From Owenia fusiformis (taxonomy: Eukaryota > Annelida > Polychaeta > Sabellida > Oweniidae), in the NCBI GenBank assembly GCA_903813345.2, contig CAIIXF020000011.1, positions 28,390,166-28,454,165 of the forward strand: DNA of 64,000 nt, read 5' to 3'. Each line of letters begins with the position of its first letter. Positions within the stretch are counted from its first letter, which is position 1. The translations under genes were made by a program, and so were the position numbers. The notes under the pieces were generated by a model. The model had not been told where the DNA came from and made no database searches. It worked only from the letters and a program-made list of their open reading frames with translations. This document shows, one piece after another, positions 12,265 to 61,211 of the stretch.

Positions 12265-12276
12265 TATGGTGTGATA

Positions 12277-13880
12277 GCAAGGAGTGTGGTGTGGTGTGGA
12301 AGCAAGGAGTGTGATGTGGTGTGGAAGCAAGGAGTGTGTTGTGGTGTGGAAGCAAGGAGTGTGTTGTGGTGTGGAAGCAAGGAGTGTGTTGTGGTGTGGA
12401 AGCAAGGAGTGTGGTGTGGCGTGGAAGCAAGGAGTGTGGTGTGGCGTGGAAGCAAGGAGTGTGATGTGGCGTGGAAGCAAGGAGTGTGATGTGGCGTGGA
12501 AGCAAGGAGTGTGGTGTGGCGTGGAAGCAAGGAGTGTGGTGTAGCGTGGAAGCAAGGAGTGTGGTGTAGCGTGAAAGCAAGGAGTGTGGTGTGGCGTGGA
12601 AGCAAGGAGTGTGATGTGGCGTGGAAGCAAGGAGTGTGATGTGGCGTGGAAGCAAGGAGTGTGATGTGGCGTGGAAGCAAGGAGTGTGGTGTGGCGTGGA
12701 AGCAAGGAGTGTGGTGTAGCGTGGAAGCAAGGAGTGTGGTGTAGCGTGAAAGCAAGGAGTGTGGTGTGGCGTGGAAGCAAGGAGTGTGGTGTGGCGTGGA
12801 AGCAAGGAGTGTGGTGTGGCGTGGAAGCAAGGAGTATGGTGTGGCGTGGAAGCAAGGAGTGTGGTGTGGCGTGGAAGCAAGGAGTGTGGTGTGGCGTGGA
12901 AGCAAGGAGTGTGGTGTGGCGTGGAAGCAAGGAGTGTGGTGTGGCGTGGAAGCAAGGGGTGTGATGTGGAAGCAAGGAGTGTGGTGTGGTGTGAAAGCAA
13001 GGAGTGTGGTGTGGTGTGGAAGCAAGGGGTGTGGTGTGGAAGCAAGGGGTGTGGTGTGGAAGCAAGGGGTGTGGTGTGAAAGCAAGGGGTGTGGTGTGAA
13101 AGCAAGGAGTGTGGTGTGGTGTGGAAGCAAGGGGTGTGGTGTGGAAGCAAGGGGTGTGGTGTGGAAGCAGGGAGTGTCGTGTGGTGTGGAAGCAAGGAGT
13201 GTCGTGTGGTGTGGTAGCAAGGAGTGTGGTGTGGTAGCAAGGAGTGTGGTAGCAAGGAGTGTGGTGTGGTAGCAAGGAGTGTGGTGTGGAAGCAAGGAGT
13301 GTGGTGTGGAAGCAAGGAGTGTGGTGTGGTGTGGAAGCAAGGAGTGTGGTGTGGAAGCAAGGAGTGTGGTGTGGTGTGGAAGCAAGGAGTGTGGTGTGGT
13401 GTGGAAGCAAGGAGTGTGGTGTGGTGTGGAAGCAAGGAGTGTGGTGTGGAAGCAAGGAGTGTGGTGTGGAAGCAAGGAGTGTGGTGTGGAAGCAAGGAGT
13501 GTGGTGTGGTGTGGAAGCAAGGAGTGTGGTGTGGAAGCAAGGAGTATCATGTGGAAGCAAGGAGTATCATGTGGAAGCAAGGAGTATCGTGTGGAAGCAA
13601 GGAGTATGGTGTGGAAACAAGGAGTATGGTGTGGAAACAAGGAGTATGGTGTGGAAACAAGGAGTATGGTGTAATAGCAAGGAGTATGGTGTGATAGCAA
13701 GGAGTATGGTGTGATAGCAAGGAGTATGGTGTGGAAACAAGGAGTATGGTGTGGAAGCAAGGAGTATGGTGTGGAAGCAAAAGGTGTAGCGTGGAAGCAT
13801 AATGTGTAGCGTGGAAGCAAAATGTGTAGCGTGGAAGCAAAATGTGTAGCGTGGAAGCAAAAAGTGTAGCCTGGAAGCAA
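12277..13880. repeat. Minisatellite subarray A: 20- and 25-bp units
   Basis: The units are built from pentamers (GTGGT, GTGGC, GTGGA, AGCAA, GGAGT); the 25-bp form has one extra GTGGN. In 12541-12960 most units are the 25-bp form. Near 13550-13880 the units drift ('ggagtatggtgtgga', then 'aatgtgtagcgtgga'). A 175-bp higher-order block (seven 25-bp units) is duplicated, with its diagnostic GTAGCGTGAAAGC at 12566 and 12741. Confidence 0.92.
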
Positions 13881-13982
13881 AAAGTATGGTTTGGAAGTGA
13901 GGAGTGTGTTGTGAAAGCAAGGAGTGAGGTATAGAAGTGTGAAAGCAAGAAGGGTGGTGTGTAAGCAAGAAGGGTGGTGCGA

Positions 13983-14228
13983 AAGCCAGGACGTGTGGTG
14001 TGAAAGCCAGGACGTGTGGTGTGAAAGCCAGAACGTGTGCTGTGAAAGCCAGGACGTGTAGTGTGAAAGCCAGGACGTGTGGTGTGAAAGCCAGGACGTG
14101 TGGTGTGAAAGCCAGGACGTGTGGTGTGAAAGCCAGGACGTGTGGTGTGAAAGCCAGGACGTGTGGTGTGAAAGTCAGGACGTGTGGTGTGAAAGCCAGG
14201 ACGTGTGGTGTGAAAGCCAGGACGTGTG
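13983..14228. repeat. Minisatellite subarray B: 21-bp units
   Basis: About twelve 21-bp units of the 'gtgtggtgtgaaagccaggac' type, written here only in part as GTGTGAAAGCCAGGAC. It is joined to subarray A by a short irregular stretch at 13881-13982. Confidence 0.9.
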
Positions 14229-15316
14229 GTCGTGTGAAAGCTAGGACGTGTGGTCGTGTGAAAGCTAGGACGTGTGGTCGTGTGAAAGCTAGGACGTGTG
14301 GTCGTGTGAAAGCTAGGACGTGTGGTCGTGTGAAAGCTAGGACGTGTGGTCGTGTGAAAGCTAGGACGTGTGGTCGTGTGAAAGCTAGGACGTGTCGTCG
14401 TGTGAAAGCTAGGACGTGTCGTCGTGTGAAAGCTAGGACGTGTCGTCGTGTGAAAGCTAGGACGTGTCGTCGTGTGAAAGCTAGGACGTGTCGTCGTGTG
14501 AAAGCTAGGACGTGTCGTCGTGTGAAAGCTAGGACGTGTCGTCGTGTGAAAGCTAGGACGTGTCGTCGTGTGAAAGCTAGGACGTGTCGTCGTGTGAAAG
14601 CTAGGACGTGTCGTCGTGTGAAAGCTAGGACGTGTCGTCGTGTGAAAGCTAGGACGTGTCGTCGTGTGAAAGCTAGGACGTGTCGTCGTGTGAAAGCTAG
14701 GACGTGTCGTCGTGTGAAAGCTAGGACGTGTCGTCGTGTGAAAGCTAGGACGTGTCGTCGTGTGAAAGCTAGGACGTGTCGTCGTGTGAAAGCTAGGACG
14801 TGTCGTCGTGTGAAAGCTAGGACGTGTCGTCGTGTGAAAGCTAGGACGTGTCGTCGTGTGAAAGCTAGGACGTGTCGTCGTGTGAAAGCTAGGACGTGTC
14901 GTCGTGTGAAAGCTAGGACGTGTCGTCGTGTGAAAGCTAGGACGTGTCGTCGTGTGAAAGCTAGGACGTGTCGTCGTGTGAAAGCTAGGACGTGTCGTCG
15001 TGTGAAAGCTAGGACGTGTCGTCGTGTGAAAGCTAGGACGTGTCGTCGTGTGAAAGCTAGGACGTGTCGTCGTGTGAAAGCTAGGACGTGTCGTCGTGTG
15101 AAAGCTAGGACGTGTCGTCGTGTGAAAGCTAGGACGTGTCGTCGTGTGAAAGCTAGGACGTGTCGTCGTGTGAAAGCTAGGACGTGTCGTCGTGTGAAAG
15201 CTAGGACGTGTCGTCGTGTGAAAGCTAGGACGTGTCGTCGTGTGAAAGCTAGGACGTGTCGTCGTGTGAAAGCTAGGACGTGTCGTCGTGTGAAAGCTAG
15301 GACGTGTCGTCGTGTG
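14229..15316. repeat. Minisatellite subarray C: ~45 copies of a 24-bp unit
   Basis: The unit core is CGTGTGAAAGCTAGGACGTG; on the plus strand it would encode GRVKARTC in the first seven copies and RRVKARTC in about 38 following copies. The later copies look identical by eye, which points to recent amplification. Confidence 0.95.
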
Positions 15317-15592
15317 AAAGCCAGGACGTGTCGTGTGAAAGCCAGGACGTGCCGTGTGAAAGCCAGGACGTGTCGTGTGAAAGCCAGGACGTGTCGTGTG
15401 AAAGCCAGGACGTGTCGTGTGAAAGCCAGGACGTGTCGTGTGAAAGCCAGGACGTGTCGTGTGAAAGCCAGGACGTGTCGTGTGAAAGCCAGGACGTGTC
15501 GTGTGAAAGCCAGGACGTGTCGTGTGAAAGCCAGGACGTGTCGTGTGAAAGCCAGGACGTGTCGTGTGAAAGCCAGGACGTGTCGTGCGCAA
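15317..15592. repeat. Minisatellite subarray D: 21-bp units
   Basis: Thirteen copies of a unit that is the subarray C unit less one GTC triplet, with GCTAGG changed to GCCAGG. Confidence 0.92.
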
Positions 15593-16316
15593 GGAGAGTG
15601 TGGTGCGCAAGCAGAGTGTGGTGCGCAAGCAGAGTGTGGTGCGCAAGCAGTGTGGTGCGCAAGCAGTGTGGTGCGCAAGCAAAGTGTGGTGCGCAAGCAA
15701 AGTGTGGTGCGCAAGCAAAGTGTGGTGCGCAAGCAAAGTGTGGTGCGCAAGCAAAGTGTGGTGCGCAAGCAAAGTGTGGTGCGCAAGCAGAGTGTGGTGC
15801 GGAAGCAGAGTGTGGTGCGGAAGCAGAGTGTGGTGCGGAAGCAGAGTGTGGTGCAGAAACAGAGTGTTGTGCGGAAGCAGAGTGTGGTGTGCAAGCAGAG
15901 TGTGGTGTGCAAGCAGAGTGTGGTGTGGAAGCAGAGTGTGGTGTGGAAGCAGAGTGTGGTGTGGAAGCAGAGTGTGGTGTGGAAGCAGAGTGTGGTGTGC
16001 AAGAAGAGTGTGGTGTGCAAGCAGAGTGTGGTGTGCAAGCAGTGTGGTGTGGAAGCAGAGTGTGGTGTGCAAGCAGTGTTGTGTGCAAGCAGTGTGGTGT
16101 GCAAGCAGTGTGGTGTGGAAGCAGAGTGTGGTGTGCAAGCAAAGTGTGGTGTGCAAGCAAAGTGTGGTGTGCAAGCAAAGTGTGGTGTGCAAGCAGAGTG
16201 TGGTGTGCAAGCAGAGTGTGGTGTGCAAGCAGAGTGTGGTGTGCAAGCAGAGTGTGGTGTGCAAGCAGAGTGTGGTGTGCAAGCAGAGTGTGGTGTGCAA
16301 GCAGAGTGTGGTGTGA
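15593..16316. repeat. Minisatellite subarray E: 18- and 16-bp units
   Basis: Units are of the GTGCGCAAGCAGAGTGTG type (18 bp); a 16-bp form lacks an AG. The spelling drifts from GCGCAAGC through GCGGAAGC to GTGCAAGC left to right, consistent with short-range unit copying. Confidence 0.92.
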
Positions 16317-16400
16317 AGCAATGGATGTTGCAATGTTTTCAGCTTCCACACTTTAATCATTGCTTCCATTCTACACTCACTGCTTTCAGCCTCCCATTAC
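16317..16400 (-). repeat. Inverted degenerate minisatellite units at right border
   Basis: Read on the minus strand, this flank gives 'gaaagcagtgagtgtag', 'aatggaagcaatgatt' and 'aaagtgtggaagctg', clearly diverged units in the opposite orientation to the main array. The orientation switch lies near 16325. Confidence 0.7.
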
Positions 16401-18799: not shown

Positions 18800-19584
18800 C
18801 AAAATGTTTAGATAACAGGAAATTAAATCTTTAATAAACACCTTATTGGGCTGCTACATGTATATACTAATGCAACTGGTCCGTATCAAGAGTAGCCTGA
18901 TTATGACCAGTGGACCAGCTATTAGGGCACATACTGACTACAAAGCAAAACGTCAGTTCTTCAACCACATTAAATGATGTGCAAGTAAGGACATGTAAAA
19001 TATATTTTTAATCAATATCACATAATATTGAATTACACATTACACCTCTCTGATTCTTAGAGCAAAGGCAATATGTATGGTCTATTGTATGAGAAAGATA
19101 GATTTAGTTGAAACTCTTTTCAATTACAAATTTACCTTTTCATAAGTCAACTTTTTATTTAACAAAAACATCTTCAAATTGAATTCAGTACTCAATTTTA
19201 TTTTCAAATCTTCAATCCTCATGATATGTTTTTTTAATTAATGTGATACTTACCCTCTTTGTCCTCATTGTGAATTTGTCTCAATCCTTTTCTTGTCCAG
19301 AACATTTAATATGTTTCCTTCAGAAGAACTTTTTCTAGCAACACAATCAACTTCTTGGTCCAGCACTACATCATCAGTAGTGAACTATCAGTTATTAGAG
19401 AAGACTGAGTTTCTAAAGCATCAAGTATGGCATCTGCAAGGTAAACAACATACAAAGAGATACCCTTACAGAGCCAAATAACAATATCCTATAAAAAACT
19501 ATCAAAATATTTCATACTATTGAGATGAAAATCTATACATTGAAGAATGATTCGAGCAAGGTGAGCACAATGAGCTTTACATTA
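18800..19584. other. Non-coding spacer
   Basis: No supported gene. A phrase near 18820-18850 (caggaaat.aaatctttaataaacaccttattggg) recurs near 20895, 22535 and 24045, marking a dispersed repeat. Confidence 0.45.
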
Positions 19585-19925
19585 AATACAAGCATAAAAG
19601 CAATAAATTCAAAACTCTCTGTCGTAAGATAAGAAAAGAATTTGAATTGGATATAGCGAAAAATACTATAACTAATCAGAAGCCATTCTGGGCTTTTGTC
19701 AACAGTACCATTTAGGTAAGGTTGAAAGTAGGCCCTATAGACAGCCAAATGGAAACACAACAGACAATGACAGTGACAAAGCAAACATCTTAAATGGTTA
19801 TTTTGCAAGTGTCTTCACTGATGAAACAACCTCCAAGAGTTCCAAGACCAGAAATGGAAACCAGCTCAATACTATTGACATAAATCGAATGGGTGAAGCA
19901 CAAGGAACTATGCAACCAGTATAAA
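19585..19925 (+). pseudogene. LINE ORF2 fragment (endonuclease-RT linker), copy 1
   Basis: Conceptual reading gives KIRKEFELDIAKN, QKPFWAFVNST and, after a stop, YKPNGN..., DKANILNGYFASVFTDE. That is the usual 'FWxxV...NG.... KA..LN.YF.SVFT' stretch between endonuclease and reverse transcriptase in non-LTR retrotransposons. Stops and a frameshift break it, and the RT proper is absent. Confidence 0.65.
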
Positions 19926-20059
19926 GGAGAATATTTTGAGCATTTAATGAAGTAACATGCTTGATAGGAACCTCAATTTGAAAAGACAATGTTTTATAGA
20001 GTGTACCTAATGTGCAACTAATGAATAACAAGAATTCAATTAAAATTTAACTTTTTTCA

Positions 20060-20259
20060 AGTCATAAATTGCCCCACTACGTGACAAAAACATAGGTTAC
20101 CATAGCAACCATAACTTTTGACCAATTAGAACAAAGTAATTCATTTTTTTGTTTTTCAATGAGTATGTATTTTTCTATGATTTGTGAAAGTTTCAAGGAA
20201 AAACATTAAAAAGTTAAAAAATGTTTTTGCATGAACGTACAGTATTGAACGACCTGGTA
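20060..20259 (+). repeat. Solo right terminus of a mariner-like element
   Basis: It starts with 'attgcccc' and carries GGTTACCATAGCAACC, then 'gaaagttt' and a terminal GAACGACCTGGTA. Order and sequence parallel the right TIR of the complete mariner element at 35660-35850, but diverged. No matching left end or transposase is nearby. In the right copy of the duplication (21860-22000) the outer ~60 bp are deleted. Confidence 0.5.
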
Positions 20260-21103
20260 TATATATAAAGTTATATCAGCAAAACTTCTATTGCAGTTGA
20301 GAAAGTGTGTAAAATGAACAAAATGTGACATGAACCATATTTCTCCAACAACTCCTGGGTCTGCGGCGATGTTAATCATTTGACAATAAAATCAAAAATA
20401 TAACGGTTATGAGGCTGGAATTGATATCAGTTATTTCTCAATGATTGTTTAATAAGTGCTCCAAATTTGACAGAAAAATTGCCCATGCCTTATATCTCCC
20501 TCAAAAATCCTCATGACATCTGGGACACCCTGAAACTTTTCACCCATGTGTGTATTTCAAATAATCCAAGGACATTTCATCCTTGTCAGCTGTTGTTATT
20601 TACGCCCAATTTATGACATACATCTAATGAGGGATCTGGAGGAGGCAAAAATAAAATAAAAACAGTGTATGAATCAACATTTTATTTTTATTTTTTTAAC
20701 TTCAAAGGGCTGGAAATCATTGATAATCAATGCTTTTGAATAAAATAAATGCTGTTTTTAAATAGGTTTCATGTATACCAATACTATCTCAAATTATGTA
20801 AGCCAAACACATTCCTTAATCCCCTGAATATTCTGTTGGAGGAATTTTCCATAGAAATCCAATGGTATAATTCCAAGCAGATTTTTAGATGACAAAAAAT
20901 CTTTAATACACACCTTATTGGGTTGCAATATAAACTCATGCCCACTTTTTTGAATATGGATGAGCTTATGAGTGAAGACAATAGTGATGACAACTACAGA
21001 GATGCAATAATGCAAAAAGAATCGTCTGGAAGTTTGAGTGAAGAAGTGAACAAATCAAAGAAAAAAAGCAATGATAAAAGAGAAAAGCAATGACAAAAGA
21101 GGA

Positions 21104-21390
21104 AAGCAAAACTACGCCCCCAATCATATATTTGCAAGCTCTTAAATCGTTACCAGAACACGACAGACGCACCATGACGTAACAACACCAAGTTAAGCAA
21201 ATACGATCCAGTCTCAAGGGTGTAAAAAATGAGCAATTTCGTATGCTGTACCTTGAGAATATTGCTCATAGTGAAGTTGAGGACGATGAGGAAACAATAC
21301 ACAATATTTGTAAACATTCCCACATCACAGGTGCATTATGCAATTGAACATTATACACAATCGATACGCTCGAGACAGAGTTGGATGTAA
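21104..21390 (+). pseudogene. LINE ORF1-like fragment
   Basis: Nearly identical to 25706-25989. It reads IIYLQALKSLPEHDRRTMT, then a stop where the other copy has a sense codon, then LKGVKNEQFRMLYLENIAHS. It separates the two segmental duplication copies and is directly fused to the second ORF2 fragment. Confidence 0.65.
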
Positions 21391-21730
21391 AATACAAGCA
21401 TAAAAGCAATAAATTCAAAACTCTCTGTCGTAAGATAAGAAAGAATTTGAATTGGATATAGCGAAAAATACTATAACTAATCAGAAGCCATTCTGGGCTT
21501 TTGTCAACAGTACCATTTAGGTAAGGTTGAAAGTAGGCCCTATATATAAGCCAAATGGAAACACAACAGACAATGGCAGTGACAAAGCAAACATCTTAAA
21601 TGGTTATTTTGCGAGTGTCTTCACTGATGAAACAACCTCCAAGAGTTCCAAGACCAGAAATGGAAACCAGCTCAATACTATTGATATAAATCGAATGGGT
21701 GAAGCACAAAGAACTATGCAACCAGTATAA
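21391..21730 (+). pseudogene. LINE ORF2 fragment, copy 2
   Basis: Second copy of the fragment at 19585. The longest clean piece begins at 21527 (KVGPIYKPNGNTTDN...) and ends at the same stop as copy 1. One A is missing from the 'agaaaagaattt' run, shifting frame upstream. Confidence 0.65.
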
Positions 21731-22723
21731 AGGAGAATATTTTGAGCATTTAATGAAGTGACATGCTTGATAGGAACCTAAATTTGAAAAGACAATGTTT
21801 TATAGAGTGTACCTAATGTGCAACTAATGAATCACAAGAATTCAATTTAACTTTTTTCACGTCATAAATTGCCCTGCGTGACCAAAACATAGGTTACCAT
21901 AGCAACCATAACTTTTGACCAATCAGAACAAAGTAATTTATTTTTCTTGTTTTTCAATGAGTATGTATTTTTCTATGATTTCTGAAAGTTTCCTGGTATA
22001 TATATAAAGTTATATCAGCAAAACTTCAATTGCAGTTGAGAAAGTGTGTAAAATGAACAAAATGTGACATAAACCATATTTCTCCAACAACTCCTAGGTC
22101 TGTGGCGATGTTAATCATTTGACAATAAAATCAAAAATATGTCCCTCAAAAATCCTCATGACATCTGGGACACCCTGAAACTTTTCACCCATGTGTGTAT
22201 TTCAAATAATCCAAGGACATTTCATCCTTGTCAGCTGTTGTTATTTACGCCCAATTTGTGACATACATTAAATGAGGGATCTGGAGGAGGCAAAAATAAA
22301 AACAGTGTATGAATCAACATTTTATTTTTATTTTTTAAACTTCAAAGGGCTGGAAATCATTGATGATCAATGCTTTTGAATAAAATAAATACTGTTTTAA
22401 ATAGGTTTCATGTATACCAATAATATCTCAAATTATGTAAACCAAACACATTCCTTAATCCCCTGACTATTCTGTTGGAGGAATTTTCCATAGAAATCCA
22501 ATGGTATAATTCCAAGCAGATTTTTAGATGACAAAATTTTTTTAATACACACCTTATTGGGTTGCAATATAAACTCATGCCCACTTTTTTGAATATGGAT
22601 GAGCTTATGAGTGAAGACAATAGTGATGACAACTACAAAGATGCAATAATGGAAAAAGAATCGTCTGGAAGTTTGAGTGAAGGAGTGAACAAATCAAAGA
22701 AAAAAAGCAATGACAAAAGAGGA
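21391..22723. repeat. Segmental duplication, right copy
   Basis: Partner of 19585-21103. A third, more diverged partial relative is at about 24020-24290. Confidence 0.85.
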
Positions 22724-32338: not shown

Positions 32339-32906
32339 GAAGTATATTCTATACACATTATTAAAATGAACCACTTTAGAATAAAATATAACTAAGGCAT
32401 GCATCAGCAAGATGGAAAGGGTAGATATTATACATTAATTTATAAAATAAGCAGATTTGTGAGAGACAACAATTATCTATTTAAGCACTTCACTACAAAA
32501 TACAATATCCCCATGCTGTACCAGACTTTTAAAACCAAGGACAAACATGAGAGTGGTAACTGCCAATATGGTGACAATAGCCGTCAGCCCATTCTAGAAA
32601 ATCAAACTATTGTACTCCAACTTTTATTTACAATATTATGTTTCACGCTTTTGCGATTTTGAAATTTGGTGGGTATTAATTCTAGTTAATTTTGTGTAGC
32701 AAATATGTATGGCTTCAGTCTACTAACCAGCATACCCTATGACTTTTATTCACAGTGTTATAACCCAAGTTCCTTCTTCAAATGGGGCGATTGAGAAAGG
32801 TCATCATAGATCACTGTAAAAATAATGAAGTCTTAATTTTTAGTAAAATTTTGAAATTATTAATTAATATAAAAAATAAAAAACAATCATCAATACAATC
32901 ATATTG
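32339..32906. other. Non-coding spacer
   Basis: An 87-codon frame at 32399-32662 shows no known motif. Nothing else seen. Confidence 0.35.
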
Positions 32907-33528
32907 ATAAGCTACAGTTATCTTTGTTGGTTTGAAATACCAAATTGATTTAGTTTTGCAATAATTTGATTTATTCTTTAAATCTTTTCCAAGCAATTTT
33001 TCTATAATTTTTTTAAATACAATGAATTTCTCAATAAGTTTTATTCATTCTCAACTTTAACATTTTGTGTTTGTGTTTCAGGCCTTGGAAGTTCAGTAAA
33101 GTTGTTTCACAAACCTAGTACCATCAGTGCTTTGCAGTGGCTCGGGTATTCCTGATATCCAAGATCTTGTGAAAATGTACACTGAAGATCTCTCAGAGCT
33201 AGTACAAACAGAACTTATCATAATGATAAGCTACAGTTATCTTTGTTGGTTTGAAATACCAAATTGATTTAGTTTTGCAATAATTTGATTATTCTTTAAA
33301 TCTTTTCCAAGCAATTTTTCTATAATTTTTTGAAATACAATGAATTTCTCAATAAGTTTTATTCATTCTCAACTTTAACATTTTGTGTTTCAGGCCTTGG
33401 AAGTTCAGTAAAGTTGTTTCACAAACCTAGTACCATCAGTGCTTTGCAGTGGCTCGGGTATTCCTGATATCCAAGATCTTGTGAAAATGTACACTGAAGA
33501 TCTCTCAGAGCTAGTACAAACAGAACTT
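32907..33528 (+). repeat. Tandem duplication of ~310 bp including an exon-like hAT piece
   Basis: 32907-33216 and 33225-33528 are nearly identical, from 'gataagctacagttatcttt' to 'ctagtacaaacagaactt'. Each copy includes the polypyrimidine-CAG run before 'gccttggaag' and the coding piece DIQDLVKMYTEDLSELVQTE. Small indels distinguish the copies. Confidence 0.93.
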
Positions 33529-33873
33529 CCTATGTGGAGGGTGTCGAGCCTCTGATTTAATCCCGATATGAAAGACCAGACACAATTTTTAAAGCATTTC
33601 AGGAATGCGATGTTAACATATTTTCTAATGTATCGGAACTGTTGAAACTTGGTGCTACACTACCAGTCAAAAGTGCTGAATGTGAGAGGAGTTTTTCTGC
33701 TCTACTTCGCCTTTGAACCCACATAAGATGCACAATGACCGAAAAAAGACTATCTGGGCTAGCTCTTATGCACATCCATTATTCAAAGCCCATTGACCTA
33801 AATGTTGCTGTTAACTTGTTTGCCAAATACCATGGTGGAAAACTGAAGAAAGTTAAACTTTTATTTAACTAAG
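33150..33873 (+). pseudogene. hAT transposase C-terminal (dimerisation) relic
   Basis: The main block, 33566-33873, reads RYERPDTIFKAFQ, NVSELLKLGATLPVKSAECE, ERSFSALLRL, a stop, THIRCTMTEKRLSGLALMHI and a terminal stop after VKLLFN. This is the hAT C-terminal dimerisation region, with the hallmark 'LPV..AE.ERSFS.L.R.K...R..M...RL..LAL..IH'. Upstream KMYTEDLSELVQTELPMW is present twice because of the local duplication. One in-frame stop replaces the conserved lysine position and the catalytic N-terminal part is missing. The mariner element at 33888 begins 14 bp after its stop. Confidence 0.8.
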
Positions 33874-33887
33874 GGAATATGCAAGTA

Positions 33888-34079
33888 CCAGGTCGATCAA
33901 TAAGTTCTGAGAATTTTCCTCTAAAATCAAGAGTTTTGTGAATTTTTATTTGAAATTTTCACAGAACATGTAATATGAATTCAGCAATTAGTGTAAGAAG
34001 TTAAATGCACTTTCCACCTATTGGGCCAAAATTATGGTTACCATGGTAACTCGTGTTTTGGGTAGGCGGGGCAAGTATT
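33888..34079 (+). repeat. Left TIR of mariner-like element
   Basis: Includes GTTACCATGGTAAC at 34037-34050, a perfect X-box-type palindrome, and ends with 'gggtaggcggggcaa'. Confidence 0.9.
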
Positions 34080-34258
34080 TTTAACGTAAATAAATTTTTT
34101 TAACATCAAGCAACAATCTTATGTTTCAACCAAAGCATTGGATTTCAATGAGGATTTTGTTGTTTTTATAACCATCACTATGGTAACAATTTAATATGAC
34201 ATCATAATTCAGGACAAATTACATAATATTACTATTACATCATAATTCCACAACCTCA

Positions 34259-35533
34259 ATGTACCCTGCCAAAATGGCCGCTCCAAAAGATGCTAAAAAT
34301 TTGGAAGAAAATGAGGAAATGTCAATACAGATGCGCAGTGCCATACGATTTTGCGTGCTTGGTGGCAAAAGTAAACAAGAAACACTCAAGGAGATGTTGG
34401 TAGCCTTTCCAGGCAGGATATCCACTAAAACTATTTACAGATGGTATGGCAAATTCCAAAGTGGGAGAACCAGTGTAAAAGATGAAGCAAGGTCAGGAAG
34501 GCCACTATCTGTTACAAAGCCCACAAATATAATGAAGCTCAAGACTGTCCTTGATGAAGACAGGCGAATAACAATCAGGGAGTTAAGTGAAAAAGTAAAC
34601 TTCAGCTATGGAAGGACACAGTACATACTGAAAGAGAAGCTCCATATGAAGCTTGTGTGTTCTAAATGGGTGCCAAAAGATCTAACCATGGACCAGAAGC
34701 AGCGCCGGGTCGATGTTGCACAAGACTTCCTCAGACGATACCAAGCAGAGGGGGAGGCTTTCTTGGAGCGCATTATTACTGCTGATGAAGTTTATGTTTC
34801 ATATTATGAGCCAGAAGGCAAGAGGGCCACAAGTGGATGGAGAACAAAGGACTCCCCTACCCCTATGACGACCATTGCTAAACTAAATCGTAGAGATGGC
34901 AAGGTTATGTTCATCATTTTCCTGGATATCTACGGGGTACTCCTGGTGCATGCAGTCGCTGAAGGACAAACCATAAACAAAGACTATTATGCTATGGTAA
35001 GTTAGTGTGTGGCTATTGATGCCCTTCAGGATCATGTCTTGCCAGAGAATTTATGTTCACTCTAGTCTAGGTAGTTCAGCTTGAATGTACATGTAGTTTA
35101 AATACATCTAGTAAGGGAATGGTGCCCTAAAAATCACTTCTTTTTTCAGGTATTGAAACGTCATCTTAAGCACGAAATTGCACGAAAACGCCCTGAAACA
35201 GAGCTGTCGTCATTACTTAATCATCACGACAATGCCCCGTCCCACACATCTTCGATTGTCAAAAGCACTGTATCTAATGACCTTCAGATGGAACAACTAC
35301 CCCATATTCCCTATTCACCAGATGTTGCGATCTGTGATTTTGGTGTGTTTGGACCGATGAAAGATGAGCTGAGAGGATTCAGATATGCGAACTTTACAGA
35401 CCTCCACAATGCCGTGCAAAATGCCCTGAAAAAACGTTTCCCAGATGGATTTAGGCACTTGTTCCGCCAGTTGGTTCAACGCCAGGAGAGGTGTATTAAG
35501 AACCGAGGAAATTACTTTGAACATCTTAATTGA
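34259..35533 (+). CDS. Mariner-family transposase, 373 codons, one intron
   Basis: Cut-and-paste DDD transposase. Exon 1 is 34259-34996 and exon 2 is 35150-35533; the intron (34997-35149) begins GTAAGT and ends TTTTTTCAG, phase 0. The N-terminal third holds the paired helix-turn-helix (IYRWYGKFQSGR, DEARSGRP, ITIRELSEKV). WVPKDLTMDQKQRR is the linker motif. Catalytic residues are D176 (ITADE), D273 (HHDNAPSH) and D309 (YSPDVAICD). I count 35 residues between the last two, against 34 in classical mariners. A second ATG at 34274 has the better Kozak context (aaaATGG) and may be the true start. No stop or frameshift interrupts either exon. Confidence 0.92.
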
Positions 35534-35659
35534 ACCCCCTTGACATCTTACTAGGACTATATGACCAACCCTAATGCAGGAAGCAGCTCAGAACTATATT
35601 TATAATTGATTTATAAATGATTTATTTACATTTTATGCGCTTTACTTCTGACATTAAAA

Positions 35660-35850
35660 TTATTTGCCCCGCCTACCCAAAACACAAGTTACCATAGTAA
35701 CCATATTTTTGGTCCAATAAAAGGAAAGTAAGAAAAACTTGGTACACTAATTGCTGAATACATTCAACATATTCTGTGAAAATTTCATTCAAAAAGTCAC
35801 AAAACTCTTGATTTTAGAGGGACATTCTCAGAACTTATTGATCGACCTGG
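35660..35850 (-). repeat. Right TIR of mariner-like element
   Basis: Inverted partner of 33888-34079, carrying GTTACCATAGTAAC at 35688-35701. Identity is high in the outer 55 bp and next to the GGGTAGGCGGGGC inner edge, lower in between. Confidence 0.9.
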
Positions 35851-36129
35851 TACATGTAAGTGCTAGAGCAACATAGTAATCTCAGGAATAGATCTGCTGT
35901 ACATATATATTTTTATATTTGTATTCCAGTTTGCAATAAGAAAACATGATGTCTCAGGAGTACTTAGTATGTATAGAGTTTTAGTGTATGTTGTACACTA
36001 CTAGTCTAGTCTACTACTAGTTATATTGTATTTAAAAATCTTAGTCAAAAAAGTAGCATTTATTCTTTAAAATGTGTTGAGATAGTGGAAAAATAATAGA
36101 GCAATTTATTTTCCACCTTACATTCTAGA

Positions 36130-37400
36130 TTTTTTGATTTATTTATTTTTATTAAGATAAATTTATTTCAGTACAAGATATAACATTATACATCCCTTCA
36201 ATCGCCCAATGGCATTATAGAAGGGTACAGTAAGATTATACAAATACAATATGAATTAAAGGTCAAGGGTTTAATACTGCACTTGAGGTTGACCATGGGG
36301 TGGACATATCTCTGTGGACAAAATTATTTAAAGTACTGTGAAAGAGGGGAAATAGCTCATAGGTTTATTTCAATGAATTCAGCAATTAGGGTTTGGAGTT
36401 TTGAATTTAAATCAAGGGAAAATTTTTCAGAACCATGTTTCATTAAGTAAAGCAGATCATTCTGAGTTGAGTGTTCGTCTGAAGAACCAGTTGCATCTAT
36501 GATATCAGTTTTTAATTTGGTTATACTTTCTTTGATGAGAGGACATTGAAAGAAAAAGTGTTTTTCTGTCTGAGGAGCTCCACAATTACAATTTGGATTA
36601 TCAATATATGTGAAATTATGTGCATAAAGTTGGGCTTTGAAAAGAAGATCGGCTCTAAATCTGTTAATTAGAATTTCATGAGATCTTTTCAGATTGAGTT
36701 TGGAAGTGCTCATAAAACTTTCTTGATTTTTAAACAAGATCTTTTGGTGTTTTTTAAAGGATTGAAAAGTTTCCATATTACGTAATCTTTTAGGTAATTG
36801 TGACCAGTTTGATATTGAAGATGATACTGATGAATTTAAGAACCTCTCTGAGCACCTGGTGGGTAAAATAAAGTCAAATCTATAGCGCAACTTTCGTGTT
36901 CCAGGATTTTTGAACTTCTCAAAGATTTCATCTAGCAAGGGTGGATTTGGCCCATTAACTACCTTGAACATGAAGTTATTGATTTGCATTCTTCTTCTTG
37001 TTGTTTCTAAGGAAGGCCATTGAAGAAGATTTAAAACCTTATCAGTATTACTGCCATGAAGACAACCAGAGCACACAAGAGCAGCCTGATAGTAGATTTT
37101 ATCAAGTCTATTGACAAGATTTTTTGACGCATTATTAAAAAGAGCAGTTCCATAGTCAAAATGAGGTCTTATAAAGGAATTAAAAAGCGTTTTAAGATCT
37201 CTAGAGTATAACTTAGTTTTAAGATTTTTCAAGGGATTTAACATTTTTCTAACTTTATTGTATATTTCCTCAATGTGATTTTGATTCATTAGATTTTGAT
37301 CAAAAGTATATCCAAGGTGTTTATGTACATTTGTTCTTTCAATTTCAGAGTGATTTTTTGATTAAGATCTGAGAGAGGTGCTTCGTTCATATTTGACTGA
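36130..37400 (-). pseudogene. 5'-truncated LINE: ORF2 C-terminus and 3' tail
   Basis: The clean open frame is 37289-36357 (310 codons). It contains the post-RT thumb (LFNSFIRPHFDYGTALF), then RRRMQINNFMFKVV, RADLLFKAQLYAHNFTYID and the zinc-knuckle-like CNCG...KHFFFQCP. Farther upstream (to about 37400) another frame shows HKHLGYTFDQ, the motif that follows the RT core, so the frame shifts near 37290. Below the stop is a ~230-bp 3' UTR ending in AATAAA and A-rich 'aataaataaatcaaaaaa'. It belongs to the same broad clade as the copy at 38735. The RT core and endonuclease are absent. Confidence 0.82.
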
Positions 37401-44520: not shown

Positions 44521-45525
44521 TCATAGTGGGATCAGTTAGGACAATAAAACCCTAGAATTGCACTTGCTATATATAAAGCACAATGTTTTGACAGAAGTAT
44601 CATTGATACATATATATTTGATATCTAATGAAGTGGTATTGAAAAGTGGCCCCAGTTGATAATAGCAGCCCTCAAAGATTTTGCACATTTACATTGAGCC
44701 CCATGTTAATTTATCAATCTTCTAAAGACAACCTGCAGAACAGTTCTAATGTAATAAAGCCCATATTCCCAGTATGTTACAATTATATGATTATCTTCAA
44801 AATGAGAAGGGTTAAAATTTTTCTTTTGCCTAGTTCAAAAGATATTGCCGTTTGAATTTTGGAAAATCTCCATTGGCTGCCATTATAAACTACTATAAAT
44901 ATGGCTTTACTAAAGTGTCAATTTCTCAAAAAGTTTACTATGGAATTTTCTAATATTGCAGATTTCTATAGGTAATACATTGAATTTAAAAAAATCAAAC
45001 AGACACATTTCTAAAAATTTCTTATTTTTGAAATACTTAGCCGTTAAGTTGCACACGAAACTACAAAAAACCTATATTGAGCCCAATGTTAATTTAGCGA
45101 TCTTCAAAAGACCTCCTGCAGAACAGTTCTAGAGTAAAAAAGCCAATATTCCTAGTATGTTACAATTATACATTTATCTTCAAAATACAGAGGGTAAAAT
45201 TCTTTCTTTTGCTGCTATTATAAACCACTATCAATATGGCTTTACCAAAGTGTCCTTTTCTCAAAAAGTCCACTTTGGAATTTTCTAATATTGCAGATTT
45301 CTATAATTAATATATTGAATTAAAAAAAATCAAACAGACACATTTCTAAATATTTCTTATTTTTGAAATATTTAGCTGTTAAGTTACGCATAAAACTATA
45401 GAAAACCTGTATTGAGCCCCATGTTAATTCATCAATCTTCAAAAGACCCCCTGCAGAACAGTTCTAGAGTAATAAAGCCCATATTCCTAGTATGCTACAA
45501 TTATATGATTATCTTCAAAATAGAA
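44521..45525 (+). repeat. Left arm of foldback-like element (about 3 units)
   Basis: Unit landmark ATTGAGCCC starts at 44693, 45076 and 45411. Each unit then carries 'aacagttcta', 'cttcaaaat', 'tctcaaaaagt' and 'ttgcagatttctata'. Confidence 0.85.
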
Positions 45526-46082
45526 AATGTCTGCTATTTTCCGCTATTTTTTTTTTTTTATAATCCGACTTCAATTTATTTCGCCTATGGATTTCTTTGA
45601 AGGAGTTCATTCCATAAATAAATAAAATTATAAGATGCAAGATTTTTGCTATTTGTAATGAAATAATCATTGTACATGTTGACAGGGAGTTATTTTGTCT
45701 TTTGAAACAATTAAGTATGAATAAAACAACATTAAGTTTACAAACTTGAAAGACATCAATATATCTATTTTACTTAAAAGGGGATGGTGTGGGCGTCTGA
45801 TATTAAGTCTTAAACATTGTATCGTATATTTATTTTCAAAATATGTGATTTAAATCATTTTCTGAGCATTTACGATGTAATGATAACATGAGTTTAGTTA
45901 TCAGGGACTAATCAAGACTTATTACATTTTAGTAATTCATTGAATTAAAAAATGTATGTAAAGTGTCTTTCTTAGACTTAGAAGGAGAAATTTGAGATTT
46001 CAAGCCATATGTCTCAAGAAAATGCTCTTACCTTTCTAGTAGGATGAGTTCAGGTGCCAAAAACAGCTGATCAAAGGATATA

Positions 46083-47115
46083 CGAAGGGGGTATCATTAA
46101 TTAGTGAGACTTTTTTGAGGCAGTATCTTATATTCATTCAATTGCAATAAGACTTGGTAGGTATATGCCCTTGGGAATAGGGTATTGAATGAACACACTC
46201 ATTAATTTATTTTTATAGATACCTAGCAACAGCGGTTACCATGGCAACGGTTGCTAGGGGTTGGTGGAGCAGCTAAAAAATTACCAGAAACAAGGGCACT
46301 TTTTACTATGTAATTTTTTACAAAATGACAGTTTCTTTTCAAATTTTGTTTACACAGTGCCCCGAGGTGGTTGTTATGACAACACAACCAATTATTATGT
46401 CATCTCTAGTACATGATGTCACACATGGCTGTGACATCAGAGACACGGCCATTTTGCAGTACTTTAGGGTGGAGCAAAATTGGCTAAAATAGGGATGAAT
46501 TCCAAAGAACTCAATGTTAACATAAGATCTGTTATAAAATACAATGCAATCAGAGGTATTCCAGCACTAGACACCTTAAGGGGCCTACATGAGGTGTATG
46601 GACAGGAAAATGTGAAGCGGTCAACTGTTTACAGGTGATGTTCTACATTTAAAGATAATGGAAACCACACTGTTTTTGATGCTCCCAGATGTGGTCGCAA
46701 AGCTGATACCGTAATTCCAGAAAACATCAAACTTATTGAAGATATGATATCTATGGATGGTAGACACACTATTACTGAACTTTGTATTATGTCTGGACTC
46801 AAATATTCCTCAGTTCAAAAGATTCTAACCCAAGAGCTATCTATGACTCGTGTTAGCGCACATGAAATATAGAGAAATTGGAAAATTTGACATAAAATCT
46901 TAAATAAAAGTTTTTTTATATTAATAACTGCTCCGGGTCACTGGTCATGATGTCACATAGAAATCTCTTAAACCACTACATGATAGAGTTAACTAATCAA
47001 ACTACATGAGGATGTAGCATACTACCAAGATGTTATTTGGTGAAAATATCAATGCAATTGAAGCAAATTTGAAAAAGTTATGGTACTTGTCTCACTAATT
47101 AATGATACCCCCTCG
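46083..47115 (+). mobile_element. 1.0-kb mariner-type deletion derivative
   Basis: The ends are CGAAGGGGGTATCATTAATT and the inverse of CGAGGGGGTATCATTAATT, with GTGAGAC continuing the match; the left end has one extra A. TA flanks both sides (46081-46082 and 47116-47117). It keeps only the DNA-binding third of a transposase. GTTACCATGGCAAC at 46235-46248 sits inside a larger hairpin (TAGCAAC..GTTGCTA). Confidence 0.85.
46495..46872 (+). pseudogene. Mariner-type transposase N-terminus (HTH only)
   Basis: 126 codons with one internal TGA at 46636-46638, where a W is expected after VYR. Readable pieces are LHEVYGQENVKRSTVYR, FDAPRCGRKADTV, DMISMDGRHTITELCIMSG and ILTQELSMTRVSAH, the double helix-turn-helix of mariner transposases including the 'D.PR.GR' linker. 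It ends at TAG just where the catalytic domain should begin, so the DDD part is deleted. It belongs to a different lineage from the complete element at 33888, since the TIRs and HTH spelling differ. Confidence 0.75.
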
Positions 47116-47367
47116 TATATCATTTTCTAACTGAATTTTTTTGTTGAGCCTTGCATTTTTAACACTGTTTTGACAGGAAGTCATACCCAAAATGAAAACT
47201 GAATAAAACAACATTTATCCTAAATGTAGATCAAAATACTTACTCAGACATGCAAAATGTTATTATTAGTAGTAATGCTGATCATTTTCAAGAAATTAAA
47301 GCATGTAAATAAGACTTTTTTCGTCCATGATTATATACATAAAGAATTTCTTTTTTCAGAAAGCTTT

Positions 47368-47453
47368 GACACTGTGGTGTAGTGGTTAGAGCTTTGGACT
47401 CAGATTTCAGACTTTTATTCCAAAAGATCTGGGTTCAAATCCCACGGGTGGAA
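47368..47453 (+). tRNA. tRNA-Leu(CAG)-like gene or tRNA-derived repeat module
   Basis: The A box TGGTGTAGTGGTTAGAGC and a perfect B box GGTTCAAATCC are present. The anticodon arm TTGGA-CTCAGAT-TTCAG pairs fully (with wobbles) and shows CAG. A long variable arm CTTTT-ATTC-CAAAAG pairs perfectly, as in class II (Leu/Ser) tRNAs. The T stem has one C-C mismatch and the acceptor stem pairs at only about four of seven positions, so I judge it a tRNA-derived relic rather than a working gene. It lies at the same point of a dispersed repeat as the tRNA-like sequence at 40455. Confidence 0.5.
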
Positions 47454-47664
47454 CATGTTTTTATTCTTTATTTTTGTTTTTTTTTCATTTTGATCCACAA
47501 TATTTCTGAAATAATATTTTATATATGGCACTTAAACCATATCTAGTATTTCCAAGGGTTTTAATTTTTAGATGAAATCATAGAAAGCTACTTTATCTTG
47601 AAGAACATGTAAGCAAAGACCGCAAAAAGTTGAAAGAAACAGGATTTACACTTTTATCAAAAGC

Positions 47665-49701
47665 ATATTTATAGCGGTTTATGATGACAGCCAATAGAAA
47701 ATTTTCAAAATTCAAACACCAATATCTTTGGAACTAGACAAGGAAAAATGTTTTGACCCTTCTTATATTAAAGATAATCATGCTATTGTAACACAATAGC
47801 AATATGGGGTTTATTACTCTAGAACTGTTCTGAAGGGGGTCCTTTGAAGATTGATTAAAATTATTTATTATAAAATGTTTTCTATGGTTTTGTGTGCAAC
47901 TTAATCCTTCTTATTTTGAAGACAATTATGTTATTGTAACATACTAGGAATATGGGCTTCATTGCTCTAGAACTGTTCTGAAGGGGGTCCTTTGAAGATC
48001 GCTAAATTAACATTGGGCTCAATTAGTTTTTTTATAGTTTCGTGTGCAACTTAACGGCTTAATAAAGAAATTTCCAGAAATGTGCATGTTTGATTCTTTT
48101 AAGTCAAATATTAACTATAGAAATCTGCAATATTATCCTTTGAATCCTTTGAGAAAATGACATTTTAGTAAAGCCATTTTGATAATGGTATATAATGGCA
48201 GTCAATAGGGATTTTCCAAAATTCAAAATCCGATATCTTTGGAAACTAGGCAAAAGTAAAAATGTAACCCTTCTTGTTTTGGAAATAATCATGTTATTGT
48301 AATAAACCAGCAATATGGGTTTTATTACTCTAGAACTGCTCTGCAGCCGGTCATTTGAAGATTGATAAATTAACATGGGGCTCAATATAGGTTTTCTATA
48401 GTTTCGTGTGCAACTTATGGCTAAATATTTCAAAAATTAGAAATTTTTAGAAATGTGTCTGTTTGATTTGTTTAAATTCAATACATTAACAATATAAATC
48501 TGCAATATTAGAAAATTCCATAGTAAACTTTTTGAGAAATGGACACTTTAGTAAAGCAATGTTGATAGTGGTTTATAATGGCAGCCAATGGAGATTTTCC
48601 AAAATTCAAATGTCAATATCTTTGGAACTAGCGAAAAGAAAAAATTTAACCCCCCTTGTTTTGAAGATAATCATGTTATTGTAACATACTAGGAATATGA
48701 GCTTTATTGCTCTAGAACTGTTCTGCAGGTGGTCTTTTGAAGATCGCTAAATTAACATTGGGCTCAATATAGGTTTTTTGTAGTTTCGTGTGCATCTTAA
48801 CAGCTTAATATTTCGAAATTAAAATTTTTTTAGAAATGTGTCTGTTTGATTTTTTCTAAGTCAATATATTAACTATAGAAATCTGCAATATCAGAAAATT
48901 CCATAGTCAACTTTTTGAGAAAAGGACATTTTATTAAAGCCATATTGATAGCGGTATATAATGGCAGCCAATGGAGATTTTCAAAAATTCAAACGTCAAT
49001 ATCTTTGGAACTAGCGTAAAGAAAAAATTTAACCCCTCTTGTTTTGAAGATAATCATGATATTGTAACATACTAGGAATATGGGCTTTATTGCTCTAGAA
49101 CTGTTCTGCAGGGGGTCCTTTAAAGATCGCTAAATTAACATTGGGCTCAATATAGTTTTTTTTTGTAGTTTCGTGTGCAACTTAACAGTTTAATATTTCG
49201 AAATTAAGAAATTTTTTGAAATGTGTCTGTTTGATTTTTTTTAAGTCAATATATTAACTATAGAAATCTGCAATATCAGAAAATTCCATAGTAAACTTTT
49301 TGAGAAAATGACATTTTATTAAAGCCATATTGATAGTGGTTTATAATGGCAGTCAATGGGAATTTTCCAAAATCCAAAGGCCAATATCTTTGGAACTAGG
49401 CAAAAGAAAAAATTTAACCCTTCTTATTTTGAAGATAATTATATAATTGTAACATACTGGGAATATGGGCTTTATTACTCTAGAACTGTTCTGCAGGGGG
49501 TCTTTAGAAGATTGATAAATTAACATGGGGCTCAATGTAAAAATGCAAAATTTTCAAGGGCTGCTATTATTAAATGGGGGCACTTTTTATTACCACTTCG
49601 TTAGATATCAAAACTATATGTATTAAGGATACTTTGGTCAAAAAATGGTGCTTTATATATAGCAAGTGCAATTGAACAGCTAACTGGCCCCACTATCATA
49701 G
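47665..49701 (-). repeat. Right arm of foldback-like element (about 5.5 units)
   Basis: GGGCTCAAT landmarks (inverse of ATTGAGCCC) stand near 48015, 48378, 48760, 49143 and 49528, spaced 363-385 bp. The innermost unit (47665-47870) is degraded. Confidence 0.85.
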
Positions 49702-58911: not shown

Positions 58912-61211
58912 ATGCAGAACAGGATTCTTCAAATATCCATCCAAATACTGTATGTTCCATTCATTAGGATATATGTATGCGTGCTCACCAAGCTAATCGA
59001 GATCACAAACAGTATGTCTCCATACTTCTCTGCAATTCAATTAATTATGAATGAAACAAATTCAGCAAAACCTCTATCTCGATGGGAAGAAAAACTTTTT
59101 ACACATCTTGCAAAAATAAAACTAGCGCAGGCAGAAGAAAGGGGAAAGGTGAAATGTCAAAACACAAGAGGACAGGTATTAAATCATTACTTAACCTTCT
59201 AAGTACTATCAATTAAATTATCATAATTATGTACACATTTTATATCAACTATCATAGATAGGAATAATATAATGATTAGATGTTTTCATTCAAGTCCTCT
59301 TCAATTGTCATACAGCTAGTGTTGAATAGCCACTTAATACCTCATTAAATACACATTATGTCAAATGATCCACAGTATACACACATATGCACTTGTTTTA
59401 TAATCCTTTCAGCCCTTGGTGTTAATGAAAATAGAAGTTCCAAGAATTAAAAGTCAAGATGCTAAATCACCTCTGAAAAGGCACAGGGCAAGATTAATAA
59501 ATAAAGTGAGGCAAAAAGTTAGCGGTGGAAAAGATAATTCTACTATTCACCAAATGTCAAAAGAGTGGCGTGTTCAGCACCGTAAAAAGAAACCCCGTGA
59601 ACTTTTGACAACTAGGTGCTAAGCAGGCACTTTCTATGAAGGCAGCGGCAAGACTTACATGGGGTCAAGTAAAAGTTATAACCTGCCATCTCAAATCAAC
59701 AAACGTAAAAATAGCTAGCTATAATAGCCAACAGGAATCAAAAAAGAATATTCTTTCAAAAATCAAGTTAAAATCAAAACTCAAACTCTTTGCCAAAAAA
59801 GATTTGACAGCTCCAGAAAGCAGAGGAGGAATTGTAAGGAAAAAACTTCCTATCTTTCAAACTTACCTATTCATCTGACCATCTTGAAAAAATGGAAAGG
59901 TATGGAATGTTAATGTTAGACCACCCTGTCTGTGATACCAAATGATGAGGTCTGGATAAAGTTGGGAGGAGACAAGGGGGGTGGGAGTACTAAAATGACT
60001 TTTCAATTTGTCAACACATCCCATCCAAATGCCACTACAAACACATTGTTTTGTGCACCTGATAGCAGGGAAAATCTAGAAGCTGTTCTGAAAAGATATG
60101 GGCCTGAAATTCAAAATTTAAAGACAATGAAATACAAGGGTAGACAGATTAGATTGTTCTTGTGTGGGGACTATGAATTTTTAACCAAAACAATGGGCTT
60201 ATCTGGAGCTGCTGGTGCTTATCCCTGTTTATGGTGCAATGTTGAAAAAGCTGATATTAACATTCCAAGAGTGAAGCGCAATGACAAAAAAAAGAACAAT
60301 TGATCGAATACAACATTTTTAATGGACGGAAATGGAAATAAGTCAAAAGCCAAAGAATACAGAAATGTCATAGATGAGCCATTATTTGACATAGAACTGA
60401 CGCATATATGCCCTCCCTATCTTCACTTGCTCCTAGGCATCACCCTTAAGCAACATTTTACTTATGCATTGCAATGACATTGATAAAATTATTGCTGTTA
60501 GCATTGCAAAGGATGACATGATGTCAAACAATGGAAGTGAAACCGTTTATGGTAAATATATAAAAGGATACAAAAAAACTATTTGACATGAAGAAAAAAT
60601 TGAGTAGTATGAAAAATGGATCTTTTAAAAGGGCATACAAGGAAAATATTAAAGAAGAAGAAAGTAAGCTGACACTGAAGCTAGAGTCAGGGCCAGTAGC
60701 CGCTGAACTTGACAATATTTTGAAAAAAAAACATGAAATTCACAGATCTTCTTATCATAGCCGCAGCATGAAAGGCAACCACTGCAATAAATATTTTAAA
60801 AAAGAAGTATATGAAGACCTAGCCAGATCAGTGATTCAAACCACAGATAAAATGAGCCAATCATTGTCTTGCAGGGAACGAGTTTTGAAAAAAAAGCAGC
60901 AAGAATCGAAGAGAAAATTATAAAAATAAATGATGCATTTTCAAAGGTACATACTCTTGTAGGACATGGTAACAAAATTCAGAGAATCATTTCCCAAAGT
61001 GAACATTATCCCAAAGGCTCATATATTGGAGGACCATGTAGTGAACTTTATTAGAAAATACAAGTGTGGAATGGCTCTGTTAGGAGAGCAGGGAATAGAA
61101 GCGATACATAAAGTCTTCAATGAACTAAATCGTAGAATGCGCTCCGTCAAGCATCCTGTTAACCGACTTAGCTGTACCCTGTCAGAATTCTACCTGAACT
61201 GCCAACCTTAA
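58912..61211 (+). pseudogene. Uncharacterised multicopy family (GDYEFL / LEDHV type), broken gene
   Basis: An exon-like piece, 58912-59175 (ends NTRGQ, donor GTATTA), joins in phase to one from 59413 (LKRHRARLINKVRQK). Then NVKIASYNSQQESKKN and LTAPESRGGIVRK follow (59636-59878, other frame). Next come IKLGGDKGGGSTKMTFQFVN, FLCGDYEFLTKTMGLSGAAG and YPCLWCNV (59932-60303), then EYRNVIDEPLFDIEL and CPPYLHLLLGI (60300-60450), then a helical piece at 60588-60923. It ends FPKVNIIPKAHILEDHVVNF, GMALLGEQGIEAIHKVFNEL (60966-61211). I know this motif series as a gene family repeated many times in cnidarian, mollusc and echinoderm genomes, with no named domain and probably a mobile element. Some four to six frame breaks disable this copy. 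Confidence 0.55.

What the first reader, a model, noticed from the sequence alone, without database searches (positions are those of the whole stretch)
33888..35850. Structurally intact mariner-like element with long TIRs and a spliceosomal intron in its transposase
Seen directly: TA duplication, matching ~190-bp TIRs, an unbroken 373-codon transposase when a 153-bp GTAAGT...CAG intron is removed, and all three catalytic aspartates. I count 35 residues between the second and third aspartates. Classical mariners have short (~28-bp) TIRs, no intron and DD34D spacing. The combination suggests a separate lineage that could be active or recently active.
Basis: partly seen in the sequence, partly recalled or inferred. 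Interest (0 to 1): 0.8.

Follow-up and report, generated by a model that had tools for sequence, protein, structure and literature searches.

The report
Long-armed mariner-like jumping gene with intron
A stretch of eukaryotic (probably animal) DNA carries a complete-looking relative of the mariner jumping gene with unusually long matching ends, an intron in its enzyme gene, and what look like binding sites for host gene-switch proteins inside those ends; it is a new variant of a well-known kind.

Summary
A 1963-bp element (33888-35850) lies between TA duplicates and has inverted arms of about 195-206 bp. It encodes a 373-aa transposase if a 153-bp GTAAGT...CAG intron (34997-35149) is removed. 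All three aspartates are present (D176, D273, D309), with 35 residues between the last two. The closest solved protein is Mos1 (phmmer E 1.1e-40), and the two exons match adjoining Mos1 segments, which supports the intron. The arms match at 167 of 195 positions. Two new points. (1) A diverged 3' end of a related element lies at about 19.89-20.26 kb, duplicated at 21.69-22.0 kb, so a long-armed lineage is plausible here. (2) The inner end of each of the four arms carries an X-box palindrome (RFX-type) with a CCAAT box at the same 12-bp distance; I read this as a host-factor promoter module built into the arms. Intron retention would leave the DNA-binding half without two of three catalytic residues, a possible self-repressor (inferred). 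New variant of a known kind.

The parts
33886..33887 (.). TA target-site duplicate, left
   Evidence: sequence
33888..34087 (+). left terminal inverted arm (CCAGGTCGATCAATAAG...)
34020..34024 (+). ATTGG (inverted CCAAT box), 12 bp from the X-box, left arm
   Evidence: arm position 133
34037..34050 (.). X-box palindrome GTTACCATGGTAAC in left arm, 237 bp upstream of the preferred ATG
   Evidence: consensus from PMC2375033 passages
34259..34996 (+). transposase exon 1 (preferred start 34274): helix-turn-helix regions, linker WVPKDLT, D176
34997..35149 (+). predicted intron, 153 bp, phase 0, GTAAGT...TTTTTTCAG; in-frame stop at its third codon
   Evidence: homology on both sides
35150..35533 (+). 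transposase exon 2 with D273 and D309 and stop TGA
35651..35850 (-). right terminal inverted arm
35688..35701 (.). X-box GTTACCATAGTAAC in right arm
35714..35718 (-). CCAAT box (ATTGG on the minus strand), 12 bp from the X-box, right arm
35716..35721 (+). AATAAA, candidate poly(A) signal inside the right arm (another, ATTAAA, at 35653)
35851..35852 (.). TA target-site duplicate, right
19887..20257 (+). remnant 1: 3' end of a related, diverged element (C-terminus ...GEYFEHLMK-stop, inner arm block with X-box at 20096, tip ...CGACCTGG then TA)
21693..21996 (+). remnant 2: duplicate of remnant 1 with the outer part of the arm deleted (X-box at 21893)

Best explanation
It is an autonomous-looking cut-and-paste DNA transposon, nearest by sequence to the mariner (Mos1) transposases among what could be searched, with long (~200-bp) arms. 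Inferred working: host factors (RFX-type and NF-Y-type, by motif) bind the X-box/CCAAT module at the inner end of the left arm and drive transcription; transcription ends at AATAAA in the right arm; the 153-bp intron is spliced out to give the 368-373-aa transposase. The enzyme binds the conserved outer ~20-27 bp of both arms with its helix-turn-helix region, cuts, and reinserts at TA, using D176/D273/D309. If the intron is kept, translation stops two codons into the intron, giving a 243-248-aa protein with the DNA-binding half but without D273 and D309: a possible repressor. Shown by sequence: the anatomy, homology, open frame and motif layout. Inferred: factor binding, splicing, repression, mobility.
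For: TA duplicates, arms, open spliced frame. Mos1 match over residues 24-370, E 1.1e-40; SETMAR 4.9e-26 and Sleeping Beauty 1.7e-7 weaker. Exon 1 alone matches Mos1 10-219 and exon 2 alone matches Mos1 226-345, so the junction falls where the intron is removed. Pfam Transposase_1 is above its cut-off (33.6 vs 24 bits), DDE_3 below (14.3 vs 28.6). Arm mismatches cluster in the middle: 20 of 28 in positions 61-140; 80-bp window-scan permutation p 0.0066 (window width chosen after seeing the blocks). ATTGG-12 bp-X-box in 4 of 4 arms, 0 in 60 simulated windows (pattern derived from the arms). The four X-boxes fit the restricted RFX consensus GYTRYY-N1-3-RRHRAC (PMC2375033 passages). Remnant 1 is colinear: stop-to-tip 302 bp against 317 bp in the element (read).
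Against: No second full copy, transcript or activity data; no genome is held, and the flanks gave no empty site in the window, only a local 97% duplicate of upstream sequence. The arms differ at 28 of 195 positions. The restricted X-box consensus occurs 18 times in the window (7.4 expected), and 3 of 7 near-palindromic sites lie outside the arms (1986, 46235, 46370; 0.57 expected in all), so the motif is common here. PMC2375033 itself says that an X-box upstream of an ATG does not predict RFX-dependent expression (degenerate consensus, passage). The four arms are not independent: the remnants are one duplicated sequence, and the two arms of one element may exchange sequence. The remnant's protein match is only 9 of 20 residues. 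HTH_48 (Mos1 HTH) is just under its cut-off.
Confidence: 0.85

Rival explanations
1. An old, immobile copy whose reading frame happens to have stayed open; the long-arm family is extinct in this genome.
For: Arms differ at 28 of 195 positions; the only relatives found in the window are broken remnants.
Against: If the arm difference were all neutral decay after insertion (about 7% per site), a stop-free frame would be expected in about 6% of 400 simulations, indels ignored. The arms align without gaps over 195 positions and mismatches are fewer at the tip and inner block, which fits older, built-in asymmetry.
Confidence: 0.3
2. The conserved inner arm block is an accessory transposase-binding site (as in the IR/DR arms of Sleeping Beauty, recalled), not a transcription module.
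For: Conserved at both ends and in a diverged relative at about the same distance from the tip.
Against: No significant ungapped copy of the outer 18, 24 or 30 bp inside either arm (6 of 6 tests, p 0.27-0.87); the block is a near-palindrome that fits the RFX consensus with a fixed CCAAT partner.
Confidence: 0.3
3. The transposase has been co-opted as a host gene, with the intron marking domestication.
For: Open frame with an intron.
Against: Both arms and TA duplicates are still in place and the catalytic triad is kept.
Confidence: 0.03
4. A Tc1/Minos-type element that only resembles mariner: long arms and an intron inherited from that side of the superfamily.
For: Minos has 254-bp TIRs and one 60-bp intron in a 1.8-kb element (PMC2874221, passage).
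Against: Third catalytic residue is D, and the match to Mos1 (1.1e-40) far exceeds that to Sleeping Beauty (1.7e-7).
Confidence: 0.04

Closest known systems
Mos1 (mariner, DD34D)
   Same: Transposase alignable over residues 24-370 (E 1.1e-40), 32% identical in the alignment; DDD triad; TA target and a tip beginning CCAGGT or similar (both recalled for Mos1)
   Different: 35 not 34 residues between D2 and D3 (one inserted residue), ~200-bp arms, 153-bp predicted intron, 1963 bp; WVPKDL and YSPDVAI instead of WVPHEL and YSPDLAP
Hsmar1 / SETMAR
   Same: DNA-binding and catalytic parts both matched
   Different: weaker match; standard 34-residue spacing
Minos (Tc1 group)
   Same: 1.8 kb, 254-bp TIRs, two-exon transposase gene (PMC2874221 passage)
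   Different: 60-bp intron; the review prints DD34D, while PMC7325037 (passage) gives DD34E and places it in Tc1
Aphid LTIR-like elements (rosa-related, DD40-41D)
   Same: long TIRs, >2.3 kb (PMC5490172 passages)
   Different: ~460-bp TIRs, 40-41-residue spacing; the word intron does not occur in that paper's text
Mollusc Tc1-like elements with spliceosomal introns (TLEWI)
   Same: introns in a superfamily transposase (PMC10379824, passage and reference list; the original paper was not read)
   Different: Tc1-like, 3-5 introns
pogo-type DD35D (Passer, Fot)
   Same: 35-residue spacing, D as third residue (PMC8472432, PMC7325037 passages)
   Different: no pogo-type domain among the 9 Pfam families listed for this protein up to E 1

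Membership tests
mariner (DD34D) | TA target duplication | tested here: met
mariner (DD34D) | transposase sequence related to Mos1/Hsmar1 with helix-turn-helix and DDD domain | tested here: met
   Transposase_1 above cut-off, but HTH_48 22.5 bits is just under its 24.1 cut-off
mariner (DD34D) | 34 residues between second and third D | tested here: not met
   35, one-residue insertion against Mos1 and SETMAR
mariner (DD34D) | short TIRs, ~20-30 bp (stated for most mariners) | tested here: not met
   195-206 bp; a typical rather than strict feature
mariner (DD34D) | single ORF in a ~1.2-1.3-kb element (stated for most mariners) | tested here: not met
   intron needed for one frame; 1963 bp
mariner (DD34D) | falls inside the mariner clade in a tree with maT, rosa/VS, plant and Tc1 families | not testable with these tools
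   no reference set beyond solved structures; collection searches gave no usable relatives
Tc1 / Minos (DD34E) | glutamate as third catalytic residue | tested here: not met
   D309
rosa / LTIR / VS (DD40-41D) | 40-41 residues between second and third D | tested here: not met
   35
pogo (DD35D groups) | pogo-type DDE domain | tested here: not met
   none among Pfam hits up to E 1 (HMMER filters drop most matches above about 0.1)
RFX X-box module | fits GYTRYY-N1-3-RRHRAC | tested here: met
   4 of 4 arms, consensus from PMC2375033 passages
RFX X-box module | bound by RFX and drives transcription | not testable with these tools
   needs ChIP or reporter assay

The most novel reading that the evidence does not exclude
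A mariner-type lineage has built a host regulatory module (X-box plus CCAAT box at fixed 12-bp spacing) into the inner end of both long arms, so that transposase transcription is tied to cells with RFX activity (ciliated or sperm-forming cells), while intron retention elsewhere makes a DNA-binding repressor, like the P element (recalled). Every insertion would then also scatter RFX/NF-Y enhancers.
Probability: 0.25. Interest if true: 0.65.

Novelty: new variant of a known kind. Interest (0 to 1): 0.42.

Why it matters
Long arms in this superfamily are often read as extra transposase sites (recalled). Here the two stretches least changed between the arms are the tip and a block that looks like a transcription module, which gives a testable reason for long arms. 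If bound by RFX, it would suggest how such an element times its expression to a cell lineage and how it could rewire host genes. The intron between D1 and D2 offers a simple on/off control. Otherwise it adds one more long-armed, intron-bearing type to the mariner side of the superfamily.

Tried and rejected
Own-genome search: no genome is held. TIR pattern in viral contigs: 0 matches. Arm-module patterns in viral and genome contigs: 0 and 0. Protein query in viral contigs: 9 stretches matched a pattern, 0 confirmed. Three-sequence alignment query: 116 and 17 pattern stretches, 0 confirmed in viral and genome contigs. Phages: no match. Plasmids: 1 record, 34.5% identity over 45%, a plasmid filed under Proteus whose annotation looks to me like a laboratory vector; not pursued. 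These collections are prokaryotic or viral, so absence there says little about animals.

Papers, search listings only (shown of found): DD35D/mariner 25 of 332, long TIRs + intron 20 of 35 and 25 of 144, mollusc DD34D 3 of 4, mariner + intron + DD34D + TIRs 5 of 5: among the titles and abstract starts shown I saw no long-armed, intron-bearing DD35D mariner. RFX/X-box with transposon terms: 2 of 2, 0, 15 of 30, 0, and RFX + NF-Y spacing 1 of 1: nothing on point in what was shown. Mollusc Tc1/mariner papers seen only in reference lists were not read. PMC4777549 (passages) describes YY1-bound silencers in mariner ORFs and does not contain RFX or X-box.

AlphaFold on exon 1 without an alignment: mean pLDDT 41.5, not used. 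Intron RNA folding is no more stable than shuffles, z 1.59. Internal repeat of the tip in the arms: none significant. YY1-like word at the ATG (AAAATGGCCGC, 34271): dropped as a claim, since similar words sit in tandem-repeat units at 7998 and 38303. A profile search for further arms found only the four it was built from above its threshold. Rfam: 0 matches; tRNAs: 0.

Full report
Observation. The element runs from 33888 to 35850 (1963 bp) and is flanked by TA on both sides. The arms are 206 nt and 85% complementary in the repeat finder. Counted from the tip without gaps, 167 of 195 positions agree, with 28 mismatches (12 transitions, 16 transversions). The outermost 27 bases are identical at the two ends, and 0 of 100 shuffled windows contain them. 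The host species was not identified.

Gene. All three frames of the intron contain stops, so an unspliced message cannot give the full protein. It is the only GTAAGT...Y9-CAG pair at 60-400 nt on the + strand of the window (pattern chosen knowing the intron). The best independent support is homology: exon 1 alone matches Mos1 residues 10-219 and exon 2 alone matches 226-345. The whole protein matches Mos1 at E 1.1e-40, SETMAR at 4.9e-26 and Sleeping Beauty at 1.7e-7. The extra residue between D2 and D3 is a single insertion against both Mos1 and SETMAR. The second ATG (34274) has the better context, so the protein is probably 368 aa. No RNA evidence was available.

Relatives in the window. Searching the window with the element masked found two further places matching the inner arm, with weak C-terminal matches beside them. 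They lie in a tandem segmental duplication (spacing about 1.8 kb here; the pieces overlapping the remnants are 91-97% alike), so they represent one ancestral 3' end. It has a C-terminus ending GEYFEHLMK (9 of 20 residues identical to the element's, E 0.009 on the small target, E 0.45 over the whole window). The inner arm block and a tip CCAGGTCGTTCAATA follow. Stop-to-tip distance is 302 bp against 317 bp (read). The second copy has lost the outer part of its arm. A profile built from the four arms found no further arm above its threshold.

Arm layout. Mismatches between the two arms are not evenly spread: 3 in positions 1-60, 20 in 61-140, 5 in 141-195 (80-bp window-scan permutation p 0.0066; the width was set after seeing the blocks). 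The inner block holds GTTACCATGGTAAC (left), GTTACCATAGTAAC (right) and GTTACCATAGCAAC (both remnants), each with ATTGG/CCAAT exactly 12 bp to the tip side, 4 of 4 arms. These fit the restricted RFX X-box consensus GYTRYY-N1-3-RRHRAC, and palindromic X-boxes are reported as over-represented in RFX-regulated fly genes (PMC2375033, passages). The composite did not occur in 60 simulated windows, but its pattern was taken from the arms. Caveats: the restricted consensus occurs 18 times in the window against 7.4 expected, and near-palindromic ones 7 times against 0.57, 3 of them outside the arms. The same paper says that an X-box upstream of an ATG is not by itself predictive of RFX control. The arms are related by descent, so four sightings are not four independent events. 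That RFX or NF-Y binds here is inference; the NF-Y assignment of CCAAT is recalled.

Mechanism. The outer tip, helix-turn-helix region, DDD residues and TA site make cut-and-paste transposition the natural reading, by analogy with Mos1. The arms contain no significant ungapped second copy of the outer site (6 of 6 tests, p 0.27-0.87), which argues against Sleeping-Beauty-type double sites, though a diverged site cannot be excluded. Intron retention would end translation after two intron codons (the 248-aa frame) and leave a protein with the DNA-binding half and D176 only; a repressor role is an inference by analogy with the P element (recalled).

Activity. If the arm mismatch were all neutral decay after insertion (about 7% per site), a stop-free frame would be seen in about 6% of 400 simulations, indels not counted; at 2% it would be about 36%. 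So the open frame favours modest decay, and the arm asymmetry is probably older than this insertion. This does not show current activity. The flanks matched nothing else in the window except a local 97% duplicate of upstream sequence that does not span the insertion point, so no empty site was found.

Known kinds. Most mariners are 1.2-1.3 kb, DD34D, with 20-30-bp TIRs (PMC7325037, section 6 read), and Tc1/mariner genes are as a rule intronless (PMC10379824, passage). Long TIRs and introns each exist elsewhere: Minos (PMC2874221, passage), aphid LTIR elements (PMC5490172, passages), Tc1-like elements with 3-5 introns. Because the 34-residue spacing was tested and not met, I do not file it as a DD34D mariner; it is mariner-like in sequence and probable mechanism, and its clade is untested. 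In the search listings shown (capped lists) I saw no such combination, but most subscription papers are not held.

Verdict. Observation confirmed; lineage and activity open. New variant of a known kind, with a testable arm-as-promoter idea.

Noticed in passing
12267-16321: Large minisatellite block (periods 18, 24, 25 and multiples) with strong GC skew and long repetitive open frames on both strands.
   Followed up: no
19584-22694: Tandem segmental duplication (spacing 1.64-1.81 kb, most paired pieces 96-100% alike) carrying the two mariner-type 3' remnants beside a LINE-like reading (by eye).
   Followed up: partly
33561-33872: Frames that read like the C-terminal end of a hAT-type transposase (by eye, not scanned), just upstream of the element; a 312-bp tandem duplication lies at 32898-33528.
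   Followed up: no
46235-46248: X-box palindrome GTTACCATGGCAAC inside a CCTAGCAAC...GTTGCTAGG inverted repeat; another X-box at 1986, next to a CCAAT.
   Followed up: partly
59932-60300: Frame matching DUF1280 (E 2.3e-9).
   Followed up: no
44556-49673: Complex of inverted and tandem repeats (TRF units of 335 and 383 bp; inverted pairs 77-90% complementary).
   Followed up: no
36357-37289: 310-aa minus-strand frame that looks like the end of a LINE reverse transcriptase by eye; no Pfam match up to E 0.01.
   Followed up: no
L001 (NZ_CP135988.1): A plasmid filed under Proteus mirabilis has a stretch resembling this transposase (34.5% over 45%), with a rop gene and several predicted resistance-gene stretches; it looks like a laboratory vector.
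   Followed up: no
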